21,337 bases of DNA from a virus: positions 1-21,337 of the IMG/VR virus record IMGVR_UViG_3300025647_004030. One strand, 5' to 3'. Of the stretch, positions 1 to 21,132 are shown in pieces; positions within the stretch are counted from its first letter, which is position 1, and every line of letters begins with the position of its first letter. Below the pieces are notes generated by a model, which saw nothing but the letters and a program-made list of their open reading frames with translations, ran no database searches and had not been told where the DNA came from. A program made the translations under genes and the position numbers.

Positions 1-413
1 ATGTTCAATGCACTTTAACGTATCCTTCTGCTGATTACTCTACAACATTTACCCCTACGGGTGCGGTATCTAATTATTTATGCGTTGATGATGCTTTAGG
101 AAACCCTGATGAAGATACTACTTATGTTTCATCTTCTACTGTAGGCGGAGAAGACGAGTATTCTGTTTCCCATAGCATTACTGCAACTGATGTATACAGT
201 GTTAAAGTTAATACTCGAGCAATGAAAGACGACGTTAATCCTAGAAATTTCAAACATGGAGTTCGTACAGGATCAAATGCAAACGAAACAGAATATGTTT
301 TAGGTGAAGGATACGGTACTTATATAAATGTTTACGACGATCAAGGAAACGGTACACCGTGGGATCAATCGTCAATTGATGCTATGCGATCATTTATCCG
401 AGTTCAATCTTAA
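1..413 (+). CDS. probable phage virion/fibre-type structural protein, C-terminal part
   Basis: The open frame enters from the left edge (first full codon at base 3) and ends at TAA 411-413, giving the last 136 residues of a longer protein. The visible part is rich in Ser, Thr, Asn, Gly, Asp and Tyr, with alternating polar/hydrophobic residues suggesting beta structure, and no enzyme motif. It ends with a Gly-rich segment (VLGEGYGTYINVYDDQGNG) followed by SSIDAMRSFIRVQS. Such composition is usual in phage structural or adhesion proteins, and its place directly before the terminase fits a late-gene cluster. I do not recognise the family. The assignment to virion structure is inference from composition and context; the coding frame itself is secure because no stop interrupts it. 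Confidence 0.6.
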   Translation, partial: VQCTLTYPSADYSTTFTPTGAVSNYLCVDDALGNPDEDTTYVSSSTVGGEDEYSVSHSITATDVYSVKVNTRAMKDDVNPRNFKHGVRTGSNANETEYVLGEGYGTYINVYDDQGNGTPWDQSSIDAMRSFIRVQS

Positions 414-421
414 ATAGCCGT

Positions 422-460
422 TAGCTCCTTAACTAAATATATAAAAATATTAAGGAGCTA
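422..460 (+). promoter_or_regulatory. 11-bp perfect hairpin covering the terL Shine-Dalgarno, with late-promoter-like loop
   Basis: TAGCTCCTTAA (422-432) and TTAAGGAGCTA (450-460) are perfect inverted repeats separated by a 17-nt A/T loop. The right arm contains AAGGAG, the ribosome binding site for ATG 463. The loop reads CTAAATATATAAAAATA, close to the TAAATA-type late promoter of T4-like phages. In T4, genes e, soc and 49 use such hairpins to block translation from read-through early mRNA, while late transcripts starting inside the hairpin free the site. The structure is seen; the switch is inference. Confidence 0.6.
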
Positions 461-462
461 TT

Positions 463-1083
463 ATGGCGGCATCTGATGGTGTCTTAACTAAAAAAGCACA
501 CAAAAAAGAAACGTATACTGAACAAGAAATACAACATTTAGTAAAGTGTATGGATCCAAACACAGGATACTTACACTTTATGAAAAATTTCTATTACATT
601 CAGCACCCAGTAAAAGGGAAATTATTATTTAAACCATTTCCATATCAAGAAAGACTACTTCAAAGTTACCATAACCATCGATTCAATATCAATTTACTAT
701 CAAGGCAATGTGGGAAAACAACATGCGCTGCGGGATATTTATTATGGTATGCAATGTTTAACCCTGATCAAACAATATTAATTGCAGCTCATAAATATAC
801 CGGTGCTCAAGAAATTATGCAACGGATTAGATACGGGTATGAGTTATGCACTGACTATATTAGGGCAGGGGTAGTTAATTATAATAAACAATCTATCGAA
901 TTTGAGAACGGTTCTAGAATTGTTGCCCAAACTACAACAGCTAGTACAGGAAGGGGTATGTCTATTTCGTTGTTGTACTGTTTAGACGGTGATACTACTA
1001 CTGTTAAAGTTAGAAATAAACACACATTAGTTGAAGAAGAACTAACATTAGCAGAACTATATGGTAGACTTACCCGCAACTAA
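463..1083 (+). CDS. terL (gp17), part 1: terminase large subunit, N-terminal extein plus N-intein 1
   Basis: Residues 1-172 are the N-terminal ATPase part of a T4 gp17-type DNA packaging motor. SRQCGKTT at residues 80-87 is the Walker A motif with the T4-type SRQxGKT form. The extein stops at SISLLY, just before the Walker B acidic pair. From Cys173 (base 979) the last 34 residues are an intein N-terminal fragment starting CLDGDTTTVKV, block A of the Hint fold. The TAA at 1081 is genuine: the frame of the next ORF also carries a stop (1085-1087), so one indel cannot join them. ATG 463 follows AAGGAG with normal spacing. The product should trans-splice with the product of 1100-1840. Confidence 0.93.
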   Translation: MAASDGVLTKKAHKKETYTEQEIQHLVKCMDPNTGYLHFMKNFYYIQHPVKGKLLFKPFPYQERLLQSYHNHRFNINLLSRQCGKTTCAAGYLLWYAMFNPDQTILIAAHKYTGAQEIMQRIRYGYELCTDYIRAGVVNYNKQSIEFENGSRIVAQTTTASTGRGMSISLLYCLDGDTTTVKVRNKHTLVEEELTLAELYGRLTRN

Positions 1084-1435
1084 TTAATGGAAAGATCTTA
1101 TGAATCAAAACTATATATCAAATGACGAATACGAAATATTAACTCCTAACGGGTGGGAAGATTTTGAAGGATTAATATTCAACGAAAATGCAAACAAAAA
1201 TTCTCGTAAAATTTATTTTGACGACAACAGCTTTGTAACTGCAACAAATAATCATAGATTTTTTTCTAATAAAAAAGAAATAAAAGTGTCTGATTTAAAT
1301 GTAGGTGATACACTAGATTCATACAAATCTGTTAAGAAAATAATCAAGCTTGAAGATACGGTATTAGATCATACGTATGAGATTTTTAATGCAAAAAATC
1401 ATGTAATAATGGCAAATGAAATCAACTCCCATCAA
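979..1435 (+). other. split intein TerL-1 (34-aa N-intein, 112-aa C-intein) at Walker B
   Basis: The N-intein runs from Cys at 979 to the stop at 1081. The C-intein runs from ATG 1100 through NSHQ ending at 1435, followed by Cys+1. The C-intein has the usual post-split strand EYEILTPNGW, the TxxH of block B (TNNH, residues 49-52), the VGDTL strand and the closing EIFNAKNHVIMANEINSHQ. The last residue is Gln rather than Asn, as in a minority of inteins. The join rebuilds SISLLY-CDEFAFV, the TerL Walker B. The break directly after the first short block resembles the atypical split seen in AceL-TerL; the lengths here are read from the sequence. Confidence 0.9.
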
Positions 1436-1840
1436 TGCGATGAGTTTGCATTTGTTGCACCAAATATAGCTACAGACTTTTGGGCATCAATTTCTCCTAC
1501 ATTAGCAACAGGTGGTAAAGCTATTATTACTAGTACACCAAACTCTGACGAAGATACATTTGCAACAATTTGGCATCAAGCATTAGATAAATTTGATGAT
1601 CATGGAAATGAACAAATTATAGGAAAAAATGGATTCTTCCCATTTACGGCACATTGGAATGAACATCCTGATAGAGATGAAAAATGGAAACAAGAAGAAA
1701 TTGGAAGGATCGGTGACGAACGATTCCAACGTGAGTACGAGTGTGTAGTAGGAAATACTACTGTTACAATAGAAGATGAAAATGGAAATATTTTTATTGT
1801 TACTATTAACCAGTTATTTAATATGATGGAAAAACTATGA
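1100..1840 (+). CDS. terL (gp17), part 2: terminase large subunit, C-intein 1, middle extein, N-intein 2
   Basis: This ORF has three parts. Residues 1-112 are the C-terminal half of split intein 1. Residues 113-214 are the central TerL extein, beginning CDEFAFVAPN (Walker B Asp-Glu, D114/E115) and including IITSTPN, the motif III/coupling segment after Walker B in gp17-type terminases. Residues 215-246, starting CVVGNTTVTI, are the N-intein of a second split intein. Its start follows GGAAAG. It ends with TGA 1838-1840, sharing ATGA with the next ORF, which suggests translational coupling. The middle fragment must therefore be spliced at both ends, an uncommon architecture. Confidence 0.93.
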   Translation: MNQNYISNDEYEILTPNGWEDFEGLIFNENANKNSRKIYFDDNSFVTATNNHRFFSNKKEIKVSDLNVGDTLDSYKSVKKIIKLEDTVLDHTYEIFNAKNHVIMANEINSHQCDEFAFVAPNIATDFWASISPTLATGGKAIITSTPNSDEDTFATIWHQALDKFDDHGNEQIIGKNGFFPFTAHWNEHPDRDEKWKQEEIGRIGDERFQREYECVVGNTTVTIEDENGNIFIVTINQLFNMMEKL

Positions 1841-2304
1841 TTCATTGTCAGTACTGTAATACTCCAATGTTGATATTTACAAGTATGCAATACATGCAAT
1901 GTACAAATAAATATTGTGGTGTAAAATGGTCGTTTGATAATAAATTAATTGAGAATAATTCAGGAATGAAAGAATTAAGAAAAAATACAAAAGGGTATAA
2001 AATATTAACTCCAAACGGTTTTCAACCTTTTGCTGGTGTTAGCATGATGGGAGAAAAATATGTTATTAAATTGATATTTGAGCATAGCATAGAACTTAAA
2101 TGTACATTTAATCACAAGTTATACGTTGATTTAACTACTGTAGTAACTGCAGACGAACTAAGAATAGGTGATACAATTCTCACTAGCAAAGGTAATGTTC
2201 GACTAGTTGCAAAAGAAATTGTTGATTTCATTGAACCTGTATACGATGTTATTGAAGTAAGTAACGGACATCGATATTACACTAATACCCTATTAAGTTC
2301 GAAT
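1742..2304 (+). other. split intein TerL-2 (32-aa N-intein; C-intein with N-terminal zinc ribbon)
   Basis: The N-intein starts at Cys (1742) and ends at base 1837. The C-intein lies in the next ORF and ends in SSN at 2304, followed by Cys+1 (TGT 2305). The junction joins QREYE to CKFLVF, which I recall as the insertion position of AceL-TerL. The C-intein has YKILTPNGF, TFNH (block B TxxH, residues 90-93), IGDTILTS and VYDVIEVSNGHRYY. The residue before the terminal Asn is Ser, not the usual His. Both frames are closed near the break: the downstream frame has TAA at 1819-1821, so a simple frameshift error is excluded. Confidence 0.88.
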
Positions 2305-3057
2305 TGTAAGTTTTTAGTGTTTGACGAAACATTAATTAATTCGATAAAGTTATCGCAAATGGATGGAAAAGCACCTATTTTAAACATGGGTCAAGTTCGA
2401 TGGTACAAAAAGCCATTACCGCAGTATACATATTGTGTAGCATTAGATCCTAGTATGGGTACCGGCGGTGACTACGCGGCTATTGAAGTATTTGAATTAC
2501 CAACATATGAGCAAGTTGCAGAATGGCAACACAATACTACATCAATACCTGGACAGATTAAAATATTAACAGACATATGTAAATATATTCAATACGAATG
2601 TAACCAAACAAATAATATTTACTGGTCTGTTGAAAACAATGGAATCGGTGAAGCAGCATTAATTGTTATAAACGATTTTGGGGAAGAAAATATTCCAGGT
2701 TTATTTATATCCGAACCTATGCGGAAAGGTCATGTTAGAAAGTTTCGTAAAGGATTTAATACTACGTACAGTACAAAAATTACAGCGTGCAGTCGATTAA
2801 AAACAATGATAGAAAATGATAAAATGATAATTTGCTCTAAACCATTTATAAGCGAATTAAAAGGATTTATTGCATCGGGCTCAAGTTTTCAAGCAAAAAC
2901 TGGACTTACTGATGATTTAGTTAGTGCAGCACTTTTAGCTATACGAATGATGTCTGTATTAAAAGATTGGGATCCTAGAGTCTATAACACATTTACACAA
3001 ATGAGTCATGATGAAAATTATGAGATTCCTATGCCAATATTTATGAGCTCAATCTGA
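1837..3057 (+). CDS. terL (gp17), part 3: terminase large subunit, zinc-ribbon-tagged C-intein 2 plus nuclease extein
   Basis: Residues 1-156 precede the splice point and residues 157-406 are the C-terminal extein with the RNase H-like headful nuclease: ALDPSMGTGGDYAA (D204), YWSVENNG (E266) and LTDDLVSAAL (D359/D360) fit the acidic triad of gp17. The three exteins add to 524 residues, normal for a T4-like TerL. The first 30 residues form a Cys4 pattern, CQYC then QCTNKYC (C4, C7, C22, C27), resembling a zinc ribbon fused ahead of the C-intein. The start at 1837 has a GGA site and overlaps the preceding stop; an alternative ATG at 1966 would drop the zinc ribbon but is poorly spaced from any Shine-Dalgarno. 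Confidence 0.92.
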   Translation: MIHCQYCNTPMLIFTSMQYMQCTNKYCGVKWSFDNKLIENNSGMKELRKNTKGYKILTPNGFQPFAGVSMMGEKYVIKLIFEHSIELKCTFNHKLYVDLTTVVTADELRIGDTILTSKGNVRLVAKEIVDFIEPVYDVIEVSNGHRYYTNTLLSSNCKFLVFDETLINSIKLSQMDGKAPILNMGQVRWYKKPLPQYTYCVALDPSMGTGGDYAAIEVFELPTYEQVAEWQHNTTSIPGQIKILTDICKYIQYECNQTNNIYWSVENNGIGEAALIVINDFGEENIPGLFISEPMRKGHVRKFRKGFNTTYSTKITACSRLKTMIENDKMIICSKPFISELKGFIASGSSFQAKTGLTDDLVSAALLAIRMMSVLKDWDPRVYNTFTQMSHDENYEIPMPIFMSSI

Positions 3058-3068
3058 TAAATAATAAT

Positions 3069-4409
3069 ATGAATAGAATTAACAAAATAAGTAATGATCT
3101 TTTTAATAAAATTCGAGGAAGGTTTCCAAATGTTACTATAGGTGATAAAGATGGAAACATAACCAATAATCCGCATGACGCTAGGTTCTTTGATTTTAAT
3201 TACGAGCATAATGGAAATGAGCTCGGTGCTATTACAATTAAACTGGAAGATAATAAAATAATAATAATATTTTCAAAAGACTTTGTGTCAGATAAAGATG
3301 AAATATCAAAATCACAATGGTTTGATTTTTTAAAGGGATTAAGAGTTTTTTCAAGAAAACGTCGATTACGATTTGATGTTCGAGACATTACAAAAACAAA
3401 TTTAAATAAAAGAGATTATAAATTCTTAGCTAAACACACTGGGGAAGACCAAATGAATGAATCGGCAATGTACGGAACTTCACGAGTAAGTTACCAAAAC
3501 ATTAATAATGCAAGATTAGTTATCAAACATTCGCAACCTATTAACACAGAAAAAACTTCAAACAGATCGCATTCTGTAAACGCATTATTTATTGAAAGTA
3601 ACGAGGGTGAACGATTTAAATATCCGTTTAATCATTTAAACGGTGCTAGGGCAATGGCTAGACATGTAAGCGAAGGTGGAACACCATTTGATCAGTTTGG
3701 TCAGCATATTGTAGATTTATCAGAGGAATTAAGTAAACTTCGTAAATTTAAATCATATATGAATCGGTCAGGTGTAATGGCTGAAAGTTTGTCGCAATAT
3801 ACTGATGTTATTAAAGAACGCATGAATTATGTAAAAAAAGAAATTATGATGTTGCAAAAAGAGTCGTATTACACTGAAGCTAAAAATAACTTTAAAGAAG
3901 AAGAATACAACGATGTTCCAGATGAAATTCGAGAAAATTGGATCGATCAGTTAACTATTAAACAATTTAATGAAGAATTGGCAGACATTTTTCCTTACAT
4001 TTATAGATTAATTTCTGAAAAAACTTCAGTTAAAGAACTCGGGCCCGACGATTTTAATTTGTCTGAAGAAAGTACCGAAGATGAAAAAACAACTTCAAAA
4101 AAAGTAGGCAATACTACTGATGATAACGAAGACGATGAAAAAGATTTAGATGAATCAGTTAAACCACATACTCCACTGAGTGAGTTTATTATGAGTTTTT
4201 ATGACTCGACTACTGGGAAATTTCCAAAAGGTGAAACTGCTGTGTTAACAATGGTTGAAAAAAGTTACGGTGATCGATTTGTCACTCCGGCAAAAACATT
4301 TATCGAACGTGTAAACACAAAGTTTGAAGAATTTCATAATCAGTCATCGACTATGATTGCAGACGATACCGATCTGTTGAGAATTAAAGATTTAGCAGGT
4401 TTACAGTAA
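3069..4409 (+). CDS. conserved-looking phage protein of unknown function, 446 aa
   Basis: I do not recognise a domain with certainty. The N-terminal 120 residues are basic and beta-rich (DARFFDFNYEHNG, FSKDFVSD, GLRVFSRKRRLRFDVRDI). The middle (about 215-280) is predicted helical. Residues 345-375 form a very acidic low-complexity linker (STEDEKTTS, DDNEDDEKDLDE), before a C-terminal helical part ending DLLRIKDLAGLQ. There is no signal peptide or membrane segment. It lies between terL and a metallopeptidase gene, so a role in the capsid, packaging or late morphogenesis is possible but unproven. ATG 3069 lies 11 bases after the terL stop and has no clear Shine-Dalgarno. Confidence 0.75.
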   Translation: MNRINKISNDLFNKIRGRFPNVTIGDKDGNITNNPHDARFFDFNYEHNGNELGAITIKLEDNKIIIIFSKDFVSDKDEISKSQWFDFLKGLRVFSRKRRLRFDVRDITKTNLNKRDYKFLAKHTGEDQMNESAMYGTSRVSYQNINNARLVIKHSQPINTEKTSNRSHSVNALFIESNEGERFKYPFNHLNGARAMARHVSEGGTPFDQFGQHIVDLSEELSKLRKFKSYMNRSGVMAESLSQYTDVIKERMNYVKKEIMMLQKESYYTEAKNNFKEEEYNDVPDEIRENWIDQLTIKQFNEELADIFPYIYRLISEKTSVKELGPDDFNLSEESTEDEKTTSKKVGNTTDDNEDDEKDLDESVKPHTPLSEFIMSFYDSTTGKFPKGETAVLTMVEKSYGDRFVTPAKTFIERVNTKFEEFHNQSSTMIADDTDLLRIKDLAGLQ

Positions 4410-6666: not shown

Positions 6667-6906
6667 ATGACAAAATCATTTGACCCCAGTAAGTTCCGTA
6701 AAGAACTTACTAAATCTATCTCTGGTATGGGTTTAGGTTTTAACGATCCTACAGATTGGATTAGCACAGGTAATTATGCGTTAAATTATCTAATTTCAGG
6801 AGATTTTAATAAAGGTATCCCATTAGGTAAAGTTAGTGTATTTGCAGGAGAAAGTGGCTGCTTACCTGACTCAGCTAAAGTTATGATTCGATATAAAGAA
6901 AAATAA
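6667..6906 (+). CDS. uvsX, part 1: UvsX recombinase N-terminal extein plus 15-residue N-intein
   Basis: Residues 1-64 are the N-terminus of a RecA-type recombinase (MTKSFDPSKF, then WISTGNYALNYLISGDF and GKVSVFAGESG). The extein stops inside Walker A: GESG here continues as SGKS in the next ORF. From Cys65 (base 6859) only 15 residues remain (CLPDSAKVMIRYKEK) before TAA 6904-6906; they match the first block of an intein. The next ORF's frame is closed by TAA at 6924-6926, so one indel cannot connect them. AGGA at 6654 precedes the start. The protein should trans-splice with 6936-8060 to make the complete P-loop. Confidence 0.92.
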   Translation: MTKSFDPSKFRKELTKSISGMGLGFNDPTDWISTGNYALNYLISGDFNKGIPLGKVSVFAGESGCLPDSAKVMIRYKEK

Positions 6907-7307
6907 ATTATTAACAACATTATTAAGGTGATATTATGAATTATATCGAAAAAGAAGTAACAGTGAAAGAACTTCGCGAATTATACCATACTAATAAGTA
7001 TGATATTGAAATAAACACTCCTGACGGATATCAAACACTGGGAAAATGGTTTGATAAGGGAGCTCTTAAAATGGTTAAAGTATGTACTCAGTCTTTTGAA
7101 ACAGTGTGTGCAGTAAACCATCTTGTCCAGTTAGATGATGATTCTTGGGTACAAGCAAGCGATCTAGAACTAGGAATGAAAGTCCAAACACTAAATGGTG
7201 TTGAATCAGTTATTGATATAACTAATCAAAAAGACGCCGAATGTTATGATTTTGAAGTTTTACATAATAATCATAGGTATTACGGCGACGGTATTGTTAG
7301 TCACAAT
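6859..7307 (+). other. split intein UvsX-1 with ultra-short N-intein, inside Walker A
   Basis: The N-intein is 15 residues (6859-6903) and the C-intein 124 residues (6936-7307). The C-intein starts with KEVTVKELRELYHT, a segment that lies in the N-intein half of the TerL-1 intein here (EELTLAELYGRL), so the break is one strand earlier. It goes on with YDIEINTPDGYQ, the block B region AVNH (Ala in place of the usual Thr of TxxH), LELGMKV, CYDFEVLHNNHRYY and GIVSHN followed by Ser+1. Splicing joins GESG to SGKSF. The only comparably short natural N-intein I recall is VidaL (about 16 residues). Confidence 0.9.
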
Positions 7308-8060
7308 TCAGGCAAATCATTTATATGTTCAGGAAACATAATCAAACATGCTCAAAAACAAGGTATTTTTGTAATTTTAATCGATTCTGAAAATTCCTTA
7401 GACTCTGACTGGTTAACTGCTCTTGGAGTTGATATAGACGAGTCAAAACTATTAAAACTAAATATGGCAATGATCGACGATGTTGCAAAAACTATTTCCA
7501 TTTTTATTAAAGATTACAAAGAATTGCCAGAAGAAGATCGACCTAAAGTATTATTTGTAATCGATTCGTTAGGTATGCTAATGAGCCCGACAGAAGTTAA
7601 TCAGTTTGACTCAGGTGATATGAAAGGCGATATGGGTCGTAAAGCTAAAGCATTGAAAGCACTTGTAACAAATTGTGTTAATATGTTTGGATCTCATAAT
7701 ATTGGATTAGTTGCTACAAATCATACATATGCTAGTCAAGACATGTTTGACCCTGATGATAAAATTGCAGGAGGATGTTTAACTGCTGGCCATAAAGTGC
7801 AAATGGCAGATGGCTCATTGAAAAACATTGAAGATATTCAAATCAACGATACTGTTGTTACCCTTGAAGGCGATTTTAATGTTGAAAAGACATTTGAATT
7901 TAATGATAAAGAAGTGTTTGAAATTGAATTAGAAACTGGTGAAATTATTCAAGCAACCGGTGAACATAAGTTTTTAACACAAGTAAACGGTAGTCAACTA
8001 GTATGGAAAACACTTGCTGAGTTATCAGTAGATGATGAAATTTTACGAGTAGGCGTCTAA
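6936..8060 (+). CDS. uvsX, part 2: UvsX C-intein 1, central extein, N-intein 2
   Basis: Residues 1-124 are the C-intein of UvsX-1. Residues 125-280 are the RecA-core extein: SGKSF finishing Walker A, ILIDSENSLD, VLFVIDSLG (Walker B Asp210), KGDMGRKAKALKALV, VATNHTYASQDMF and KIAGG at the end of the L2 DNA-binding loop region. Residues 281-374, beginning CLTAGHKVQMADGSLKNIED, are the 94-residue N-half of a second intein, including block B TGEH (residues 61-64 of the intein half). AAGGTG ahead of ATG 6936 is a strong ribosome site. Both ends need trans-splicing before a working recombinase exists. Confidence 0.93.
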   Translation: MNYIEKEVTVKELRELYHTNKYDIEINTPDGYQTLGKWFDKGALKMVKVCTQSFETVCAVNHLVQLDDDSWVQASDLELGMKVQTLNGVESVIDITNQKDAECYDFEVLHNNHRYYGDGIVSHNSGKSFICSGNIIKHAQKQGIFVILIDSENSLDSDWLTALGVDIDESKLLKLNMAMIDDVAKTISIFIKDYKELPEEDRPKVLFVIDSLGMLMSPTEVNQFDSGDMKGDMGRKAKALKALVTNCVNMFGSHNIGLVATNHTYASQDMFDPDDKIAGGCLTAGHKVQMADGSLKNIEDIQINDTVVTLEGDFNVEKTFEFNDKEVFEIELETGEIIQATGEHKFLTQVNGSQLVWKTLAELSVDDEILRVGV

Positions 8061-9758
8061 CAAATGACAAAAGATGAATTGCAACAGTACGTTGAAAATA
8101 CTACTAATTTAGCCGCGTTGTCACGAGTAGTTAAATTACGCAATCCATCTTTATATCAAGAAATATTAGATTCGTGGAGTTTTAGTGATCCGTATGCTAA
8201 CTTTGTCGAAGCGGTTAACTATTACTTAAAAATGGAAAGTATATATTGTATGTACGGACATCGTATGAAGTTTAATGGGTATCATAACGAATATACTTGT
8301 AAGAAAAATTGTCAGCACTCGATTAATAAGAAACATAATACCATGATGGAAAAGTACGGTGTCGAACATGCACATCAGTCTGATAAAATTAAAGAAAAAT
8401 TTAAAGATACACTTCTTAAACGATACGGTAGTGATAGTTTATACAAAGCATTTAATGAAAAAAGAACCGCTACTAATATTAAGAAATTTGGTCATAAAAC
8501 ACCATTAGAATCATTAGAGATACACAATAAAACCGTAAAAACGTATCGTGAAAATACTGGCTTTTCTAATCCATTTTGTAAGTTTAATTCAGAAGAATAT
8601 CGAGCGGAGTTTAGAAAAAAAGCAATTGAAACATATCAAACAAATAATCCTAAACTATACGACTATAAGTTAATATACGATACTCTTAGTGAAAATTCTT
8701 ATACTAAAGCTAGTCAAATATTGGGATTATATCCAGCACATTTAAAAAATGTTGCTACTCAAATGAATTGGGAACACTTATTACCTAAAAAGTCATCGTA
8801 TGAACAGTTAGTTGAACAATTCTTGGTTAATAACAACCAAAAATTTGTAATAAACACTAGAAGCATTATTGCTCCATACGAATTGGACTTTTACTTACCT
8901 GATTTGAAAGTTGCAATTGAAATTAATGGGTTGCGGTGGCATAGTGAACATTTTGCTAATAAAGATAGATATTATCATTTGCAAAAAACAAAACTATGCA
9001 AAGAGAAAGATATTCGTTTAATACATATATTTGAAGATGAATTTAATAATCATCAGGAAACAGTTTTTTCTATTATTAGTACCGTATGTGGAATACCAAA
9101 ACATAAAGTATATGGTAGAAAAACACAGGTAAAAGAAATAAGTAGTAGTGAAGCACGACAGTTCTGTGAAAAGTATCATTTACAAAAGTATGCCTCTGCT
9201 AGTATTAAGTATGGAGCGTACTATGAAAATAAATTACTAGCAGTAATGACGTTTAAACGAGATCGTGATTCAATATATGAACTAAGTAGATACTGTGTTC
9301 ATCCTGAATATATGTTAATAGGAATAGCTCAAAAAATGTTTTCTGCCTTTTTAGCAGCTAACGTACATTCTGAAATATATACATACAGTGACAATAGATA
9401 CTTTACTGGAAATCTATACGAACAACTGGGATTTAAATATGTTCACGATACTTTACCTAATTACTGGTATTTTAATGATTCAACCGTTAGACATCATCGA
9501 CTTAGGTTTACAAAGCAACGGTTAGTTAAAAATGGAGGGAATCCTAATTTAACTGAGTGGGAAATAATGAAAGATAACGGCTATGATCGCATTTGGGATT
9601 GTGGCAGCAAAAAATGGGTCTATAAAGAGGATATTTAAATGAATTTAAAAAAAGCAAAAATTAAAAGCAAAAAAAGTATTGGTATACAACCGGTGTATGA
9701 TATTTGTGTACCAGATGCACATCATTACTTATTAGATAGTGGAATTGTAAGTCATAAC
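7776..9758 (+). other. canonical split intein UvsX-2 with endonuclease gene between its halves
   Basis: The N-intein is 94 residues (7776-8057) and the C-intein 40 residues (9639-9758), the classical split position in the loop where homing endonucleases normally sit. The C-intein carries GIQPVYDICVPDAHHYLL and GIVSHN, followed by Ser+1. Splicing joins KIAGG to SGFIYASS, matching the RecA segment after loop L2. The intervening 8064-9638 ORF is an independent homing-endonuclease gene with its own start and stop, i.e. the fractured-gene layout described from marine metagenomes (Dassa et al. 2009). Confidence 0.92.
8064..9638 (+). CDS. EDxHD (Vsr-like) homing endonuclease, free-standing within the split intein
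   Basis: A 524-residue protein. Residues 85-190 carry repeated target-recognition-like units (KYGVEHAHQS, KRYGSDSLYK, KKFGHKTPLE). Residues 245-335 form the Vsr/EDxHD nuclease: SYEQLVEQFL (E247), YELDFYLPD (D275), VAIEINGLRWHSE (E286, H293), NKDRYYHLQKT (D301), then IRLIHIFEDEF. This fits the I-Bth0305I/I-TslI class. Residues 385-470 look GNAT-like (LLAVMTFKRD, ELSRYCVHPEY, NLYEQLGFKYV), as in other phage endonucleases of this class. It begins three bases after the N-intein stop and ends directly at the C-intein ATG. It probably cuts an intein-free uvsX allele to spread the element; the target site is not visible from sequence alone. Confidence 0.88.
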   Translation: MTKDELQQYVENTTNLAALSRVVKLRNPSLYQEILDSWSFSDPYANFVEAVNYYLKMESIYCMYGHRMKFNGYHNEYTCKKNCQHSINKKHNTMMEKYGVEHAHQSDKIKEKFKDTLLKRYGSDSLYKAFNEKRTATNIKKFGHKTPLESLEIHNKTVKTYRENTGFSNPFCKFNSEEYRAEFRKKAIETYQTNNPKLYDYKLIYDTLSENSYTKASQILGLYPAHLKNVATQMNWEHLLPKKSSYEQLVEQFLVNNNQKFVINTRSIIAPYELDFYLPDLKVAIEINGLRWHSEHFANKDRYYHLQKTKLCKEKDIRLIHIFEDEFNNHQETVFSIISTVCGIPKHKVYGRKTQVKEISSSEARQFCEKYHLQKYASASIKYGAYYENKLLAVMTFKRDRDSIYELSRYCVHPEYMLIGIAQKMFSAFLAANVHSEIYTYSDNRYFTGNLYEQLGFKYVHDTLPNYWYFNDSTVRHHRLRFTKQRLVKNGGNPNLTEWEIMKDNGYDRIWDCGSKKWVYKEDI

Positions 9759-10184
9759 TCAGGTTTTATCTATGCGTCTTCTATTGTAGTAGCAATGAAA
9801 AAATTAAAATTAAAAGAAGATGAAGATGGTAATAAAACTTCTGAGGTATTAGGTATTCGATCAGCATGTAAAGTGATGAAAACTAGATATGCAAAACCAT
9901 TTGAAGGTGTGCAAGTTAAAATTCCATATGATCGCGGCATGGATCCATATTCAGGTTTAGTTGACTTATTTGAAAAACGAGGATTATTACAAAAAACTGG
10001 AAATCGGTTACGATATGTTGATCCTCAAGGAAATGAACATATTGAATTTCGTAAAATATGGCATCATTGGCAGAAATTAGATATGATTATGAAAGACTTT
10101 AGTTCAAAAGAAAAAATGGTAAATAACTCTGAAGTTGTTGAAGAATTGGCAACTGATACAGAGGAGAATATTACACATGAATGA
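9639..10184 (+). CDS. uvsX, part 3: UvsX C-intein 2 plus C-terminal extein
   Basis: Residues 1-40 are the C-intein (basic leader MNLKKAKIKSKKS, then the closing Hint strands and GIVSHN). Residues 41-181 are the UvsX C-terminus: SGFIYASSIVVAMKKLKL, SACKVMKTRYAKPF, VQVKIPYDRGMDPYSGLVDL (the T4 UvsX GGIDPYSGL segment) and an acidic tail. The exteins sum to 361 residues, close to T4 UvsX (391). GAGG precedes ATG 9639. The stop overlaps the next start by eight bases. Bases 10053-10081 are a perfect copy of the gp32 start region in another frame. Confidence 0.92.
   Translation: MNLKKAKIKSKKSIGIQPVYDICVPDAHHYLLDSGIVSHNSGFIYASSIVVAMKKLKLKEDEDGNKTSEVLGIRSACKVMKTRYAKPFEGVQVKIPYDRGMDPYSGLVDLFEKRGLLQKTGNRLRYVDPQGNEHIEFRKIWHHWQKLDMIMKDFSSKEKMVNNSEVVEELATDTEENITHE
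10053..10081 (+). repeat. 29-bp perfect direct repeat, copy 2 (uvsX 3' region)
   Basis: Identical to 5603-5631. Here it is read as KIWHHWQKL in the UvsX C-terminal part, whereas the other copy is the gp32 start codon and first codons. The flanks diverge immediately on both sides. Confidence 0.95.
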
Positions 10185-10890: not shown

Positions 10891-11829
10891 ATGATAGAAT
10901 TATCAACAGTATACATGGGAATTGGGTTTTTATTAGCAGCATATTCTGTAATCGCAAACGACAGTGTTCAAACTTTAGGAACATTTATGTCCTCTAACAG
11001 TAAAGTTAGATGGCAATACTTATGGATTGCAGCGTCGATTGTATTAGTTGGAACTTTGGGATATAGCTGGTACATGTACAATGGAGATATTTCCTTTGGT
11101 AGATTAACGAAAATTCCATATCAAGAAGTTCAGTGGTATCATGCGTTAGCTCCTGGGTTATTATTGATATTAACTAGATTTGGAGTTCCAGTATCAACCT
11201 CATTTTTAGTGTTATCAGCATTTGCATCATCTCTTGTATTAGAGAAAATGCTATTAAAGTCAGTTATTGGATATATTATTGCAGCAATATTTGCATATGC
11301 TTTATGGTTTATTGTTGCAAGATTTTTAGACGAGTCAAAGAAAGTTCGCGAAGAAGCAAACAATACATGGAAAGTTGCACAGTGGTGTAGTACAGGTTTA
11401 TTATGGTTTATGTGGCTTTCACATGATATGGCTAATATTGCTGTATTTTTACCTAGAGAATTATCAGTACTACATTTGTGTATTGTATTATTTGTATTTG
11501 TAAGTTTATTAGCGGTTATGTTTTACGAACGAGGTGGAAAAATTCAATCAATAGTAAAACAAAAAACATCAACAAAATTTATTAGATCTGCTACTATTGT
11601 AGATTTAGCGTATGCGTTTATACTGTGGTATTTTAAAGAACTAAACAATATACCAATGTCTACAACATGGGTTTTTGTAGGATTATTAGCAGGACGAGAG
11701 TTTGCTATTGCAACAGTTACTAATAAAAAAATGAAAAATGTATTTCCAATGGTTAGGCGTGATTTTGCTAAGATGACTATTGGACTATTAGCGTCGATTG
11801 GTATTGCTGTTAGTGTGCATTATCTTTAA
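10891..11829 (+). CDS. PiT-family (PHO4-type) inorganic phosphate permease
   Basis: A 312-residue integral membrane protein with about eight to ten hydrophobic segments and the inverted-repeat signature of PiT transporters. In the first half VIANDSVQTLGTF (N23-D24) is followed by FGVPVSTSFLVLSAF (97-111). In the second half WLSHDMANIAVFL (H178-D179) is followed by NIPMSTTWVFVGLLAGRE (253-270). In PiT proteins the paired ND and P-S-T motifs make the phosphate and cation sites. It is short compared with bacterial PitA (about 500) but near compact archaeal-type members. A good AAAGGT site precedes ATG 10891. It is probably an auxiliary metabolic gene that raises phosphate uptake during infection. 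The His in place of Asn in the second ND motif is unusual. Confidence 0.75.
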   Translation: MIELSTVYMGIGFLLAAYSVIANDSVQTLGTFMSSNSKVRWQYLWIAASIVLVGTLGYSWYMYNGDISFGRLTKIPYQEVQWYHALAPGLLLILTRFGVPVSTSFLVLSAFASSLVLEKMLLKSVIGYIIAAIFAYALWFIVARFLDESKKVREEANNTWKVAQWCSTGLLWFMWLSHDMANIAVFLPRELSVLHLCIVLFVFVSLLAVMFYERGGKIQSIVKQKTSTKFIRSATIVDLAYAFILWYFKELNNIPMSTTWVFVGLLAGREFAIATVTNKKMKNVFPMVRRDFAKMTIGLLASIGIAVSVHYL

Positions 11830-11830
11830 T

Positions 11831-12526
11831 ATGAAAACATATATTATTCGATTAAAAGAAAACAAACACTCCTGTACAATGGCGCAGGAGTGCTTTGATA
11901 AAGCAGTTAATAATGGATTATCACCTATTTTTTTTGATGCAATTGATGGAAATTATGCTAAAGAATTATATAAAGAAACTAATATTTTTCCAGCAATGAA
12001 ATTCAAAAAAAATAGATTAGGCGTATTAGGATGCTTTTTTAGTCATTATAAATTATGGGAAATGTGCGCTTCAACAGATGAACCATTTTTAATATTGGAA
12101 CACGATGGTTATATGTTAAAACCATTACCTGAAAATATATTTGATTTGTTTACTGATGTGTTGAAATTGGATCGTCTTGATCCATATAGTTCAAAATATA
12201 ATACCCAATTATTATCCGAAGATACATTACCGATTACTATTGAAAAGTATTATAATCCAAAAGCTAAAATATTAAAAACTAAAAAGTTTAATGGAACTGG
12301 CAACTATTTCAAAGGCGCATACGCATACATATTAAAACCTTTAGGAGCACAAAAACTTTTAGAGTTTATTAAAGAGCACGGACATGTTCCTGCTGATCAA
12401 CAAATAGGTGATTTAGTATTAGACACATATACAACTGTTCCAAGTATTGCACGATTGCACCCGTATTATTCAATCGGTGATAATATTAATTCAGCAAGTT
12501 TAACTAAACATTTGGAGAAAAAATAA
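11831..12526 (+). CDS. glycosyltransferase family 25-like (LPS-type)
   Basis: 231 residues from ATG 11831, one base after the permease stop; an upstream in-frame ATG at 11798 lies inside that gene and is rejected. The start MKTYIIRLKENK, the GVLGCFFSHYKLWEMC block (64-79) and FLILEHDGYM (acidic E90/D92 motif) are the hallmarks of GT25 beta-glycosyltransferases. GNYFKGAYAYILKPLGAQKLL and VPADQQIGDLV match the later family blocks. It probably adds a sugar to a lipo-oligosaccharide-like acceptor or virion glycan. It opens a block of carbohydrate genes, and its stop overlaps the next ATG by one base. An 8-bp inverted repeat (11867-11892) lies near its 5' end. Confidence 0.8.
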   Translation: MKTYIIRLKENKHSCTMAQECFDKAVNNGLSPIFFDAIDGNYAKELYKETNIFPAMKFKKNRLGVLGCFFSHYKLWEMCASTDEPFLILEHDGYMLKPLPENIFDLFTDVLKLDRLDPYSSKYNTQLLSEDTLPITIEKYYNPKAKILKTKKFNGTGNYFKGAYAYILKPLGAQKLLEFIKEHGHVPADQQIGDLVLDTYTTVPSIARLHPYYSIGDNINSASLTKHLEKK

Positions 12527-13185
12527 TGTGGAGTTTACCGACAAGAGGAAGACCAAGTAGTTTAAAACGATTTATAGATGCATATGTAGATACTAAAGGA
12601 TCATCTGCTGTTTATGTAAGACTAGACGAAGATGACCCATTTTTAACTGAATATCTAAAGTTACAATTTCCTAAAAGTTTTATAATCAATGTTGGTCCTA
12701 GAGAAGGACTAAAAGCTGCAATGGAAGAAATGTTTAAAAAATATCCTAACGAAGATTGGTATGGGTTAGGTGCCGACGATATTGTTCCTCGAACGGACTT
12801 TTGGGATAAAGAGCTTGCAACTGAAGCAGGACTAAGAAAAATTGCTCATCCAGATGACTTGGGAAAAAGAAAGAAAAAGCACTTACCAACTCATCCGGTA
12901 TGTGGAGGAGATTTAGTAAGAGCAGTTGGATGGTTTGGACATCCAGCAACTGTTCATTTTTTTCTTGATAATAGTTGGCAGTTTGTTGGAGAAGGATTAA
13001 ATTGCATTACATTACGTGAAGATATTGTTGTAGAACATTTACATCATTCTTTAGGAAAATCACAATTAGATAGTACTTATAAAGAAGTGAATACTAAAAT
13101 GGAATCCGATAGAGCTAATTACAACGCATGGATAGAAGAACATGGAACCGCTTTATTAGCACGGTTAAAATCTCAAGGTTTTTAA
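12526..13185 (+). CDS. GT-A-type glycosyltransferase-like protein
   Basis: 219 residues. MWSLPTRGRPSSLKRFIDAY resembles the first strand and helix of GT2-like enzymes, and WYGLGADDIVPRTDFWD (78-94) has an Asp pair (D84-D85) where the metal/nucleotide-sugar DxD motif is expected. The middle contains PVCGGDLVRAVGWFG, and later a possible acceptor region HFFLDNSWQFVGE, followed by EDIVVEHLHHSLGK. This is a compact family seen in aquatic phages; sugar and acceptor are unknown. It shares one base with the GT25-like stop. The FkbM gene follows after a 64-base gap with nothing notable beyond an AAGG ribosome site. Confidence 0.7.
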   Translation: MWSLPTRGRPSSLKRFIDAYVDTKGSSAVYVRLDEDDPFLTEYLKLQFPKSFIINVGPREGLKAAMEEMFKKYPNEDWYGLGADDIVPRTDFWDKELATEAGLRKIAHPDDLGKRKKKHLPTHPVCGGDLVRAVGWFGHPATVHFFLDNSWQFVGEGLNCITLREDIVVEHLHHSLGKSQLDSTYKEVNTKMESDRANYNAWIEEHGTALLARLKSQGF

Positions 13186-13249
13186 AATGACAACACACTT
13201 GTTTTATACAAATTGCATGATTTAGCCAAAATAAGGCAACTAACATATT

Positions 13250-13900
13250 ATGAAAAAAACTAAATTTGATTATCGAGAAATTTTAGGAAAAACGTGGAAA
13301 TGGTCTGCTACTGATAAGAAAGCATGGAAATACTTAACTAATTCAGATCATTTAAAATTTCCAGAAACAATTTCATCAATGATTCCATCGCATCGTACAG
13401 TGATTCAAGCAGGAGGACATTGTGGATTATATCCTTATCAATATGCATCGTTTTTTGACACAGTGTATACATACGAGCCTAGTATTATTAATTATGAATG
13501 TTTAGTAGAAAATACTAAGGAAATTTCAAATATTAAAATCATTAACAAAGGTTTAGGAAATACATCAAAACTAGTTTCAATGAATGAAAATAGGAAAAAT
13601 ACTGGAAATCATTCAATTAATGAGTCGGAAAGTGGAAGTATTGAAATAACTACAATAGATAGTCAACTTTTGTCTGAAGTTGACTTAATTCATTTAGATT
13701 TAGAAGGTTATGAGAAGTTTGCACTAGAAGGAGCCGAAAATACTATTAAACAGTGCAAACCTCTAATAGTATTAGAAACTAATGATTGTTGTTTAAATTA
13801 CGGGTATACTCTCGATGACTTAACTCAATATTTAAACACATTAGGATATAAGTCTATAATGCAGTGGGAAAATGACCAGGCGTATGCATACTGTAATTAA
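13250..13900 (+). CDS. FkbM-family SAM-dependent methyltransferase
   Basis: 216 residues with the Rossmann methyltransferase pattern of FkbM proteins: VIQAGGHCGLYP (motif I, 51-62), VYTYEPSIINYECL (acidic end of beta 2, E76), IKIINKGLGN, then IEITTIDSQL and LIHLDLEGYEKFALEGA (146-162, the characteristic FkbM DxEG block). These enzymes usually O-methylate sugars, so it probably caps or modifies glycans made by the surrounding glycosyltransferases. ATG 13250 has AAGG upstream. Its 3' end overlaps the oppositely oriented sulfotransferase gene by 47 bases. Confidence 0.85.
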   Translation: MKKTKFDYREILGKTWKWSATDKKAWKYLTNSDHLKFPETISSMIPSHRTVIQAGGHCGLYPYQYASFFDTVYTYEPSIINYECLVENTKEISNIKIINKGLGNTSKLVSMNENRKNTGNHSINESESGSIEITTIDSQLLSEVDLIHLDLEGYEKFALEGAENTIKQCKPLIVLETNDCCLNYGYTLDDLTQYLNTLGYKSIMQWENDQAYAYCN

Positions 13901-14498
13901 ACCGTTTGAAATCATTAGCATACACTTTATTTAATAAGCTGATATTTCTGTGTGTAAATGGAAATGGTTTTTTATACGAAGACTGATTGTTCTTTTTAAC
14001 AAACTTATGTGTTAATTTCAACATTGTTTTCAAATCGCACATAAACGGTTTAAACCCATCTTCCAACTTATAGATATTTACACTATTACATCCTTCTATA
14101 TATAAATGTTGTGGACAAAAATGACGGTATAAATCGTCATTTTCAGAAAGAGTAGGATAAACGTCAGTTAAAAATGTTTCATAAGAATATTCTTTATGTA
14201 AATATCTATAATAAAATGCACTTTTAAATCGTTCATATGGATTTCGAACAAATGTAAATATGTTGTAATTACATATATCATCTTCATTGATTAGATTAAA
14301 TTTGATATATTCTTTAAAAAATAAATGATGATATTGTTGAGGTCCTGGTAAAGATAAATCTTGATTTGATATTAATCCATACGATGAATTGTCTAATGTG
14401 TATGGAACATTTATATTTTCAAATAAAAATTCATATATTGACTGACCAGCAGTTTTTGGAATATGTACAAATAGTAGTTTTTGTTGAGGAAGTATCAT
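13854..14498 (-). CDS. sulfotransferase-family protein (PAPS-dependent), antisense to the operon
   Basis: The only convincing minus-strand gene, 214 residues. LLFVHIPKTAGQSIYEFLFE (residues 8-27) is the 5'-phosphosulfate-binding loop of membrane-type carbohydrate sulfotransferases, and FTFVRNPYERFKSAFYYRYL (81-100) contains the 3'-phosphate-binding Arg and Ser. There is no N-terminal membrane anchor, so it would be soluble. It probably sulfates a sugar of host or virion glycan, using host PAPS. It converges on the FkbM gene with a 47-base 3' overlap, and upstream reads CTAAATAA (minus strand), a possible late promoter very close to the start. It looks like a separately acquired insertion into the + strand block. 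Confidence 0.8.
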   Translation of the reverse strand: MILPQQKLLFVHIPKTAGQSIYEFLFENINVPYTLDNSSYGLISNQDLSLPGPQQYHHLFFKEYIKFNLINEDDICNYNIFTFVRNPYERFKSAFYYRYLHKEYSYETFLTDVYPTLSENDDLYRHFCPQHLYIEGCNSVNIYKLEDGFKPFMCDLKTMLKLTHKFVKKNNQSSYKKPFPFTHRNISLLNKVYANDFKRFNYSMHTPGHFPTAL

Positions 14499-14565
14499 AC
14501 ATTTATTTAGTTGACTATTTTTTGCATACTAAATACGAATGATATAAACTAGCGAGATTTAAGAT

Positions 14566-15333
14566 ATGAAAAAAATTGTACTATGTACTGGAGGATATGA
14601 TCCTATTCATTCTGGCCATATTGCGTCGTTTAAAGAATCAAAATGTTTAGGAGATTACTTAATAGTAGGTCTAAATTCCGATGAATGGTTAGCACGAAAA
14701 AAAGGAAAACCGTTTATGCCAATGCACGAACGTATGTGTATTGTAAACAACTTGGAAATGGTAGATCAAACGATAACATTTTCTGACGACGATAATACTG
14801 CATGTGATGCTATCGAATGTTGTTTAGCACAATATCCTGATTATGAAATTATATTTGCAAATGGTGGAGATAGAGAATCGACTAATATTCCCGAATATAT
14901 TAAATATAAAGATAACAGTAGAGTCACGTTTAAATTTGGAGTTGGCGGATCGACAAAGAAAAATAGTTCTTCTTGGATATTAGAGGAATATAAAAATCCA
15001 AAAGTTGAAAGACCGTGGGGCTGGTATAGAGTCTTAAATGATAAAAAAATATACAAAGTTAAAGAACTAGTGATCCAACCCCATAAACAATTGTCAGTTC
15101 AAAGACATACTAATAGAGCTGAACATTGGTATGTGTTAAGCGGCGAATGCGTTGTATATACTGAATGGATGGACTTGCCTTATACAACAACATTACGTGC
15201 AAACGACACAGGGTACGTAATTCAGCCAGGTGTATGGCATCAAGGGATAAATCAAACTGACAACCCCTGTTATATATTAGAAGTTCAATATGGACTAGAG
15301 TGTGTCGAAGATGACATAGAACGGAGAGATTAA
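14566..15333 (+). CDS. cytidylyltransferase fused to a phosphomannose-isomerase-type cupin
   Basis: A two-domain fusion of 255 residues. Residues 1-140 are a nucleotidyltransferase: LCTGGYDPIHSGHIASFKES carries HxGH (H15-H18), followed by VGLNSDEWLARKKGKP, the substrate loop FANGGDRESTN and KKNSSSWIL, matching HldE/TagD-like cytidylyltransferases. Residues 148-250 are a cupin of the type II mannose-6-phosphate isomerase kind: ERPWGWYR, IQPHKQLSVQRHTNRAEHW, GYVIQPGVWHQGINQ, with metal-type His residues H173, H181, H187 and H225. It may make an activated sugar-alcohol or sugar for the neighbouring transferases. ATG 14566 has little Shine-Dalgarno. Its stop overlaps the next start by one base. 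Confidence 0.85.
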   Translation: MKKIVLCTGGYDPIHSGHIASFKESKCLGDYLIVGLNSDEWLARKKGKPFMPMHERMCIVNNLEMVDQTITFSDDDNTACDAIECCLAQYPDYEIIFANGGDRESTNIPEYIKYKDNSRVTFKFGVGGSTKKNSSSWILEEYKNPKVERPWGWYRVLNDKKIYKVKELVIQPHKQLSVQRHTNRAEHWYVLSGECVVYTEWMDLPYTTTLRANDTGYVIQPGVWHQGINQTDNPCYILEVQYGLECVEDDIERRD

Positions 15334-16010
15334 TGATACCAATTTTTATAGGATATGACCATAGGGAAGCAATAGCATATCATGTTTGCTCTAACTCTAT
15401 AATTAGACTAGCATCTACACCTGTTAGTATTTCACCACTTGCATTAAATTTATTGTCTACTTACTCTGAAGAACATACAGATGGTAGTAATAACTTTATT
15501 TACAGTCGATTTTTAGTACCTAGCTTAATGGATTACAAAGGTTGGGCTATTTTTATAGACGGTGACATGATTGTTAGAGATGATATTTTAAACTTATGGA
15601 ATTTAAAGGACGATTCAAAAGCTGTAATGGTAGTAAAACATTCATATAAAACCCGATTAACTGAAAAGTATCTTGGAGCAAAAAACGAAGACTATCCAAG
15701 AAAAAATTGGTCAAGTGTAATTTTGTGGAATTGTGGCCATAAAGCAAATCAACAAGTAACTACTAATTTTGTACAACATGCATCAGGTGCAACAGTGCAT
15801 CGATTTACATGGTTAGACGATTCCTTAATTGGTGAGTTGCCTATTGAATGGAATTGGCTACCTGATGAATTTGGAGATAATGCGTCAGCTAAATTATTAC
15901 ACTATACACTAGGAACACCGTGCTTTCACGATTTTTCATTAACTAATATGGCAAACGAGTGGCATAGAGAACGTATATATACAGAATATTCACAACAACA
16001 GCACCTTTAA
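15333..16010 (+). CDS. GT8-like glycosyltransferase
   Basis: 225 residues with PIFIGYDHREAIAYHVCSNS (characteristic N-terminus), FIYSRFLVPSL, WAIFIDGDMIVRDD (DxD, D76-D78), WSSVILWNCGH and the closing LLHYTLGTPCFHDF, the HxxGxxxP-like metal site of the family 8 GT-A fold. It should transfer a sugar from a nucleotide sugar to an unknown acceptor. Coupled by a one-base overlap to the cytidylyltransferase-cupin gene; the next gene starts one base after its stop. Confidence 0.85.
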   Translation: MIPIFIGYDHREAIAYHVCSNSIIRLASTPVSISPLALNLLSTYSEEHTDGSNNFIYSRFLVPSLMDYKGWAIFIDGDMIVRDDILNLWNLKDDSKAVMVVKHSYKTRLTEKYLGAKNEDYPRKNWSSVILWNCGHKANQQVTTNFVQHASGATVHRFTWLDDSLIGELPIEWNWLPDEFGDNASAKLLHYTLGTPCFHDFSLTNMANEWHRERIYTEYSQQQHL

Positions 16011-16011
16011 T

Positions 16012-20630: not shown

Positions 20631-21132
20631 CGACGAAGTAAACATTAAATTTGAAGGATTGCCTGTCGATGTTAGGCGAAAAATAGCATCAGCATTAAAG
20701 TTTCAAGTACCATATGCTAAGTATATGCCACAATATAAATTAGGTAGGTGGGACGGAACTGTTGCATTTTTTGGAATTGGCGGAGTAGGGTATCTTAATC
20801 ATTTGCCTACTATAATTGAGATATTAGCTAATAACAATATAGAAATTTCAGAAATTGAAGATAACCGAAATTTAGTTCAACTAAATTTCAGCGAGATTAC
20901 ATCAAGATTTTGGGCAGATCAGAATGTTAGATGGCCAGAAGGGCATCCTGCTGAAAATGAAGAAATTATGCTTAGAGATCATCAAGTAGATGTAATTAAT
21001 GCATTTTTAAAAAATCCACAAGCATTACAAGAAGTAGCAACTGGAGCTGGAAAATGTTTAACATACGATTCTACTATAATGATTGATGTTGAAAATAAAG
21101 ACTTTTATAATTTTATGATAAACAACATCTAA
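20605..21132 (+). CDS. uvsW, part 1: UvsW helicase N-terminal extein plus 25-aa N-intein
   Basis: From ATG 20605 (preceded by GGA; the ATG at 20593 has no Shine-Dalgarno) the extein has about 150 residues. It begins with the UvsW N-terminal domain (VDVRRKIASALKFQV, YMPQYKLGRWDGTVAFFG, matching T4 FRYGNWDGRI). It continues with the helicase Q/motif I region LRDHQVDVINAFL and EVATGAGK. At that Lys of Walker A an intein begins: CLTYDSTIMIDVENKDFYNF, ending MINNI at TAA 21130. The protein remodels branched DNA and unwinds recombination intermediates with UvsX. It overlaps the preceding gene by 26 bases. Confidence 0.85.
   Translation: MEHCKLIINDEVNIKFEGLPVDVRRKIASALKFQVPYAKYMPQYKLGRWDGTVAFFGIGGVGYLNHLPTIIEILANNNIEISEIEDNRNLVQLNFSEITSRFWADQNVRWPEGHPAENEEIMLRDHQVDVINAFLKNPQALQEVATGAGKCLTYDSTIMIDVENKDFYNFMINNI

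What the first reader, a model, noticed from the sequence alone, without database searches (positions are those of the whole stretch)
422..460. Possible late-only translation switch at terL
A perfect 11-bp hairpin buries the Shine-Dalgarno, while its loop holds a late-promoter-like TAAATATA. Transcripts that begin in the loop lack the left arm, so only they expose the ribosome site. The precedent is T4 e/soc/49.
Basis: partly seen in the sequence, partly recalled or inferred. Interest (0 to 1): 0.5.

Follow-up and report, generated by a model that had tools for sequence, protein, structure and literature searches.

The report
Late promoter inside ribosome-site hairpin
In front of the DNA-packaging gene of an uncultured T4-like phage, an RNA hairpin probably hides the ribosome-binding site on read-through messages and leaves it free only on messages that start inside the hairpin; the trick is known from a few phage T4 genes, and similar layouts turn up in front of other genes of other phages.

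Summary
Arms 422-432/450-460 pair perfectly over 11 bp, the right arm holds the Shine-Dalgarno (SD, 452-457) of terL (ATG 463), and the 17-nt loop holds TAAATA (434-439). By T4 late-promoter numbering RNA would start near 445, past the left arm. Predicted SD opening cost falls from about 14 to 3 kcal/mol; 0 of 500 left-flank shuffles bury the SD as well. TAAATA alone is weak evidence (19% of shuffled loops contain it). Comparison supplies the support: a related terL (L142, 75% identical N part) has the layout with different arm sequences; its contig has another such hairpin before an endolysin, as at T4 gene e; and a capped scan found 49 extended hairpins with TAAATA inside, 45 with a gene in the box's direction, 4 in the other. 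Of 104 related terL upstreams, 81 instead place TAAATA so that RNA would begin at or next to the ATG, often behind a terminator. Against: tree neighbour L004 has an SD but no hairpin, a second TAAATA (411) would give hairpin-bearing RNA, the layout is rare genome-wide, and nothing shows when, or whether, upstream RNA is made. New member of a known kind (T4 e, I-TevI, segB).

The parts
422..432 (+). left arm of the hairpin (anti-SD)
   Evidence: perfect complement of 450-460; shuffling the left flank abolishes SD burial, 0 of 500
433..449 (+). 17-nt loop holding the late-promoter-like box
   Evidence: sequence; fold
434..439 (+). TAAATA, T4-type late-promoter core; predicted +1 at 445
   Evidence: same core at -11/-10 before ATG in 81 of 104 distinct terL upstreams; T4 numbering from a passage of PMC2988020
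450..460 (+). right arm of the hairpin
452..457 (+). Shine-Dalgarno AAGGAG of terL
   Evidence: 5 nt before ATG 463; opening cost 13.8-14.1 kcal/mol in read-through RNA, 3.1 from 445
417..421 (+). outer helix, left side (pairs with 463-467)
   Evidence: minimum-energy fold
463..467 (+). start codon region, right side of the outer helix
   Evidence: minimum-energy fold
411..416 (+). second TAAATA overlapping the upstream stop codon; would start RNA at 422, hairpin included
463..1083 (+). terL part 1 (ATPase N part; its end looks like the start of a split intein)
   Evidence: phrog_5989 3e-50, Terminase_6N; intein reading by eye
1100..1840 (+). terL part 2
   Evidence: phrog_36964 3e-23
1837..3057 (+). 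terL part 3 (nuclease domain)
   Evidence: Terminase_6C 4e-11, phrog_36964 3e-51
3..413 (+). upstream co-directional gene (3' part), possible source of read-through
   Evidence: open frame; phrog_2448, unknown function

Best explanation
A start-site-dependent translation switch at terL. RNA that reads in from upstream folds 422-432 against 450-460, hiding the SD and partly the start codon, so terL is hardly translated. A T4-type late promoter (TAAATA 434-439, read by a gp55-like sigma) lies in the loop and starts RNA at about 445; that RNA lacks the left arm, so its SD is open. Translation of terL, a DNA-cutting packaging motor, then depends on its own late promoter. Shown by computation: hairpin, predicted burial and release, lineage use of the TAAATA core, gp55-type genes in related contigs, recurrence of the layout. 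Inferred: the real 5' end, the effect on translation, and that this delays terL to late infection.
For: Hairpin more than chance. SD opening cost 13.8-14.1 read-through, 3.1 from 445; left-flank shuffles reach the real value in 0 of 500. TAAATA at -11/-10 of ATG in 81 of 104 distinct related terL upstreams suggests that the core is this lineage's late box; gp55-type sigma match in 4 of 5 large related contigs, none in the window fragment. L142 terL (75% identical in the N part) has a 12-bp stem of different sequence with TATAAATA in the loop, 1 of 500 shuffles (as L574). Same contig: 14-bp hairpin with TAAATA inside before an endolysin, 0 of 500. Class test: stems extend by 3 bp or more beyond the seed in 49 of 111 real matches and 6 of 97 controls; of those 49, a gene of at least 50 aa starts on the box's strand in 45 and on the other strand in 4. 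Tail-sheath homologues: in 39 of 54 tested at most 3 of 60 shuffles bury the SD as well. Positive control in T4: e, I-TevI, I-TevII and segB at 0 of 60.
Against: No transcript or translation data. TAAATA in so AT-rich a loop has a 19% chance. A second TAAATA (411) would yield hairpin-bearing RNA. In the tree clade of four, only window and L574 (= L142) have the hairpin; L004 has an SD without one (61 of 500) and L575 neither, so it was lost or gained more than once. Genome-wide the layout is rare: at 3/60 or less, 5 of 40 genes in G007 (2.6 expected) and 3 of 38 in G001 (2.5 expected). In T4 the reversed-box control also scores, 5 of 12 against 7 of 28 forward. In SD hairpins sampled without regard to the box, TAAATA is no commoner than TATTTA, 4 of 82 each. 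Of 9 large records not chosen for a match, 1 held the pattern. AUG accessibility hardly changes from read-through to late RNA. PA5oct, among the closest named phages by terL protein (56%), shows no such layout before terL.
Confidence: 0.7

Rival explanations
1. The inverted repeat is a transcription terminator (or its remnant) of the upstream gene, and the SD in its right arm is incidental.
For: 45 of 71 related terL upstreams carry an intrinsic terminator by my pattern, and at least one shares arm letters (L015: AATAGCTCCTTAGGGAGCTATTTTTTT), so descent from a terminator is plausible.
Against: The 7 nt after the stem (461-467, TTATGGC) hold 3 T, the arm has 4 G/C of 11, and the loop is 17 nt; in the hairpin class 1 of 35 has 5 or more T in the 7 nt after the stem. 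The terminator scan found none in 300-560, but it allows loops of 3-8 only and so does not test this hairpin.
Confidence: 0.1
2. The palindrome is a DNA operator: a dimeric protein binds both arms and blocks the promoter between them, a little as I-TevI does at its own late promoter.
For: Two 11-bp arms flank the box symmetrically; operator control of a late promoter is known for I-TevI (PMC2988022, passages).
Against: Arms of the two hairpins in one contig (L142 terL and the endolysin) share little beyond the SD complement; stem extension goes with the direction of the box and gene. That the right arm holds an SD was built into the scan pattern and is no evidence here.
Confidence: 0.07
3. The hairpin is a fold without regulatory use: terL is expressed from RNA that starts at 445 or by ribosomes arriving from the upstream gene, and read-through is negligible.
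For: L004 has TAAATA plus a short SD leader and no hairpin; no transcript data exist.
Against: 0 of 500 shuffles, a second terL case, and the oriented class.
Confidence: 0.13

Closest known systems
T4 gene e (lysozyme) leader
   Same: Long upstream RNA hides the ribosome site; late promoters just upstream start RNA that lacks the 5' part of the structure and is well translated (PMC3014915, passages). The same test scores it 0 of 60.
   Different: Different gene; my detector for perfect stems of 8 bp or more did not list e. A related contig has the layout at an endolysin.
T4 I-TevI, I-TevII, segB and Aeh1 mobE hairpins
   Same: SD-burying structure; for I-TevI a late promoter makes RNA too short to form it, with similar arrangements stated for the others (PMC2988022, passages). 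I-TevI, I-TevII and segB score 0 of 60.
   Different: Those are homing endonucleases; here the gene is the packaging motor. mobE was not tested here.
T4 soc and gene 49
   Different: Gene 49 scored only 6 of 60 in my test; soc was not among the 12 rows printed.
Terminator plus leaderless-type late start in related terL genes
   Same: Would also make terL depend on its own TAAATA promoter.
   Different: Termination and a predicted leaderless mRNA instead of a hidden SD; prediction only.

Membership tests
T4-type late-promoter/SD-hairpin switch | stable RNA structure burying the SD in upstream-initiated RNA | tested here: met
   opening cost 13.8-14.1 kcal/mol, 0 of 500 shuffles; prediction only
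T4-type late-promoter/SD-hairpin switch | late promoter placed so that its RNA lacks the left arm | tested here: inconclusive
   TAAATA 434-439 gives a predicted +1 at 445, but the match is to the lineage core and not the full octamer, the core has a 19% chance in this loop, and a second core at 411 would keep the left arm
T4-type late-promoter/SD-hairpin switch | SD released in the late RNA | tested here: met
   opening cost 3.1 kcal/mol from 445; prediction only
T4-type late-promoter/SD-hairpin switch | 5' end mapped at the late promoter | not testable with these tools
   needs RNA from infected cells
T4-type late-promoter/SD-hairpin switch | upstream early or middle transcripts run into the gene | not testable with these tools
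   upstream gene 3-413 is co-directional and a scan for terminators with loops of 3-8 nt found none in 300-560, but its transcription and timing are unknown
T4-type late-promoter/SD-hairpin switch | phage encodes a gp55-type late sigma | tested here: inconclusive
   no match in the 21-kb fragment; match in 4 of 5 large related contigs
intrinsic terminator | G+C-rich stem followed by a T run | tested here: not met
   4 G/C of 11 in the arm; 3 T in the 7 nt after the stem

The most novel reading that the evidence does not exclude
Late genes of T4-like phages repeatedly evolve self-insulating promoters: the point where RNA starts decides whether it can be translated. Two interchangeable designs do this at the same gene, a leaderless start behind a terminator and a promoter enclosed in the loop of an SD-burying hairpin, and phages switch between them. 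The hairpin design recurs at terL, tail sheath, head-tail adaptor, endolysin and endonuclease genes.
Probability: 0.45. Interest if true: 0.65.

Novelty: new member of a known kind. Interest (0 to 1): 0.5.

Why it matters
In the reviews I saw passages of, this kind of control is described for a short list of T4 genes, chiefly lysozyme, soc, gene 49 and homing endonucleases. Here the same layout appears at the packaging motor, a nuclease that could be harmful early (inference), in two related uncultured phages, and a capped scan finds it before 45 genes. It makes a testable rule: find a late box between an anti-SD and an SD, and predict that only messages starting inside are translated. The related terL genes suggest a second solution, leaderless late messages, which can be checked by mapping 5' ends.

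Tried and rejected
Terminator reading: 3 T in the 7 nt after the stem; 1 of 35 in the class; the scan found none but allows loops of 3-8 nt only. Known RNA family: no Rfam match at gathering scores in the window; no tRNA. Enrichment of TAAATA in SD hairpins of viral contigs at large: none, 4 of 82 for TAAATA and 4 of 82 for TATTTA; that most sampled phages are not T4-like is my guess. Terminators before all leaderless-type genes: not general, 2 of 31 and 2 of 28, against 1 of 79 and 1 of 72 for leadered ones. Closest kin through the next gene (3069-4409): no relative confirmed. Second copy of the hairpin's core in the fragment: none. The pattern in 20 records: 11 had been chosen because they match; of the 9 others only Vibrio phage 2.275.O matched (2 places); the tool's backward-pattern control matched in 0 of 20. 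Base-pair counting in the sheath leaders: register varies in the alignment, so I used the energy test and a hand-defined 5-bp outer helix (all 5 pairs in 14 of 24 rows, one two-sided variant TAGGC/GCCTA in 2 of them; the shift control in that script failed and was not rerun; L714 was not anchored properly there).

Rows dropped before counts: L003 (upstream too short), then duplicates, leaving 71 distinct of 79, 9 loci without a nearby ATG, duplicates, and rows with under 45 bases upstream, 3 of 57 sheath rows without a testable box or SD, L204 and identical sequences. Scans stopped at 120 rows, and those kept the best 80 loci, so all are samples. The 45 genes are not independent: they fall into 33 groups by blastp.

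Full report
WHAT IS THERE. The window is a 21,337-base virus record. terL begins at ATG 463 and lies in three reading frames, 463-1083, 1100-1840 and 1837-3057. Just before it, 422-432 and 450-460 are perfect complements over 11 bp; the right arm contains the SD AAGGAG (452-457), and the 17-nt loop reads CTAAATATATAAAAATA. Perfect repeats of this size occur 0.325 times per shuffled window (40 shuffles; 2 seen), and about 0.003 would be expected to end 1-8 nt before one of 24 starts. In the predicted fold a further helix pairs 417-421 with 463-467, so the start codon is partly covered.

PREDICTED SWITCH. T4 late promoters are 8-bp boxes about one turn upstream of the start, with the first base at -13 (PMC2988020, passages). 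Counting from that, TAAATA at 434-439 starts RNA at 445, which keeps five loop bases and the right arm and loses the left arm. The cost of opening the SD is 14.1 kcal/mol in RNA from 380, 13.8 from 413 and 3.1 from 445. With the right part kept and the left flank shuffled, the cost averages 5.1 and never reached the real 14.7 in 500 shuffles. AUG pairing changes little between the two RNAs, so the predicted effect is on the SD.

IS THE BOX A PROMOTER? Alone it is weak: 19% of shuffled loops contain TAAATA, and the window has 25 on each strand. Relatives help. Of 104 distinct upstream regions of related terL genes (loci; dropped rows are told under Tried and rejected), 81 have TAAATA beginning exactly 11 or 10 bases before the ATG, 5 of them with C before it as here. 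In the first set, 45 of 71 have an intrinsic terminator by my pattern, 43 of them with TAAATA within 30 bases of the ATG, and 4 of 71 have an SD-like sequence. Four of five large related contigs match the gp55-type late sigma family, the fifth and the window fragment do not. A second TAAATA at 411-416, over the upstream stop codon, would start RNA at 422 with the hairpin included; I cannot say which is used.

THE SAME LAYOUT ELSEWHERE. A scan of viral contigs for CTCCTT, TAAATA and AAGGAG in this order (stopped at 120 rows) gave 111 distinct matches; a control with the left arm's letters reversed (also stopped at 120) gave 97. Stems run at least 3 bp beyond the seed in 49 of 111 against 6 of 97; among matches followed by an ATG and a frame of at least 40 aa it is 35 of 51 against 2 of 32. 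Of the 49, a gene of at least 50 aa starts on the strand the box reads in 45 and on the other strand in 4 (one has both, one neither); among the 62 unextended matches it is 20 and 24. The 45 genes form 33 groups and include matches to head-tail adaptor (6), tail sheath (4), tail tube (2), endolysin, endonuclease and terL (1). That terL, L142 on a 382-kb contig, is 75% identical to the window's N part; its 12-bp stem has different arm sequences and TATAAATA in the loop (1 of 500 shuffles). The same contig carries a 14-bp hairpin with TAAATA inside before an endolysin (0 of 500), which parallels T4 gene e. The pattern fixes the box between an anti-SD and an SD; only stem extension and gene direction are independent evidence.

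CONSERVATION IN ANOTHER GENE. For the tail sheath found in that scan, 57 distinct upstreams were read. In 39 of 54 testable ones at most 3 of 60 left-flank shuffles bury the SD as well; 15 of 54 do not pass. Pairing differs between subgroups, by eye: a TTTTCTCC-like arm upstream of the box in many of the closer homologues, and an arm made partly of the box itself (TAAATATCTC with GGAGATATT) in many of the more distant ones. Different pairings reach the same end. These sequences are related, so 54 is not a number of independent cases.

POSITIVE CONTROL AND LIMITS. In T4 the same test puts I-TevI, I-TevII, e, segB and the divergent pair 26/51 at 0 of 60, gene 4 at 2 and gene 49 at 6 (gene positions). 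It also marks 5 of 12 reversed-box sites against 7 of 28 forward ones, so box direction is not shown by that test in T4; the 26/51 site reads as a box both ways. In the two related contigs the layout is rare, 5 of 40 and 3 of 38 at 3/60 or less with about 2.5 expected each; reversed-box controls there are 0 of 8 and 1 of 7. It is a special device and not a general rule. SD hairpins sampled without regard to the box show no excess of TAAATA. Of 9 large records not picked for a match, 1 held the pattern. PA5oct, among the closest named phages by terL protein (56%), shows no such layout before terL.

HISTORY. In a tree of 126 TerL N parts the window groups with L004, L574 (= L142) and L575 (98/89; the bootstrap had not settled, and L004 is a long branch whose place is unsure). 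L004 has TAAATA with a short SD leader and no hairpin, L575 neither. This small clade has left the leaderless-type layout of its relatives; the hairpin was lost or gained more than once. At least one relative's terminator shares arm letters (L015), so the hairpin may descend from a terminator whose loop took in the promoter; that is a guess.

LEADERLESS STARTS. In two large related contigs the ATG lies at the predicted +1 or one base before it in 31 of 105 and 28 of 96 TAAATA-linked genes, against 2 of 61 and 1 of 30 for the reversed box; in T4 it is 3 of 58. In the window the gene after terL (3069) and the minus-strand gene at 14498 have it too, besides one site inside a gene that is probably chance. 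The 3069 gene matches phrog_13484, and 2 of the 59 leaderless-type genes of the two contigs match the same family. No transcript data support this yet. That phage messages are often leaderless is stated in the AR9 paper (PMC5312081, passages).

COMPARISON WITH WHAT IS KNOWN. T4 e, soc, 49 and I-TevI are described as having the SD or AUG hidden in RNA structure, with late RNA of e and I-TevI starting past the left strand, and similar arrangements for I-TevII, I-TevIII, segB and Aeh1 mobE (PMC3014915 and PMC2988022, passages). The window's element works like these by prediction; promoter use, 5' ends and translation were not settled. Searches for a terL example and for leaderless late T4-like genes or further hairpin cases listed no paper whose title or opening of abstract described one; the library holds open-licence papers only, the listings were short, and I read passages of six papers, not whole texts.

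The late-promoter row of the membership test was lowered from met to inconclusive, and the terminator test was re-based on the sequence itself because the scan tool could not see a 17-nt loop.

Noticed in passing
463-3057; 6667-10184; 20593-21132: Genes that look broken by split inteins: terL in three parts (Hint-like match in part 3, just below Pfam's cut-off), a UvsX/RecA-like gene in parts 6667-6906, 6936-8060 and 9639-10184 (Intein_splicing match above, RecA match below the cut-off), and by eye a third gene ending near VATGAGKC with no Pfam match. L002 looks split near the same terL site; L054 reads on into the intein-like part without a stop in the stretch translated.
   Followed up: partly
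L657-L676 and L677-L694; window 3058-3069: Many genes of two related large contigs have TAAATA exactly 11 or 10 bases before the ATG, predicting leaderless late mRNAs: 31 of 105 and 28 of 96.
   Followed up: partly
8064-9638: Reading frame with a DUF7487 match and weak acetyltransferase-like matches lies between two parts of the UvsX-like gene, where a homing endonuclease might be expected.
   Followed up: no
11798-19412: Stretch that by eye holds sugar-related genes; a sulfotransferase-like gene on the minus strand has its ATG (14498) at the predicted +1 of a TAAATA, and 14566-15333 matches a heptose adenylyltransferase family.
   Followed up: no
L511 and L567 (rows): SD-burying hairpins whose loop, by eye, seems to hold a sigma-70-like -10 box, with the left arm in the -35/-10 spacer; possibly the same trick with a host-type promoter.
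   Followed up: no
L723-L754 upstream of tail sheath: Several members of this group in which the late box itself forms part of the left arm.
   Followed up: partly
18694-18729: Second perfect 11-bp inverted repeat, inside a reading frame.
   Followed up: no
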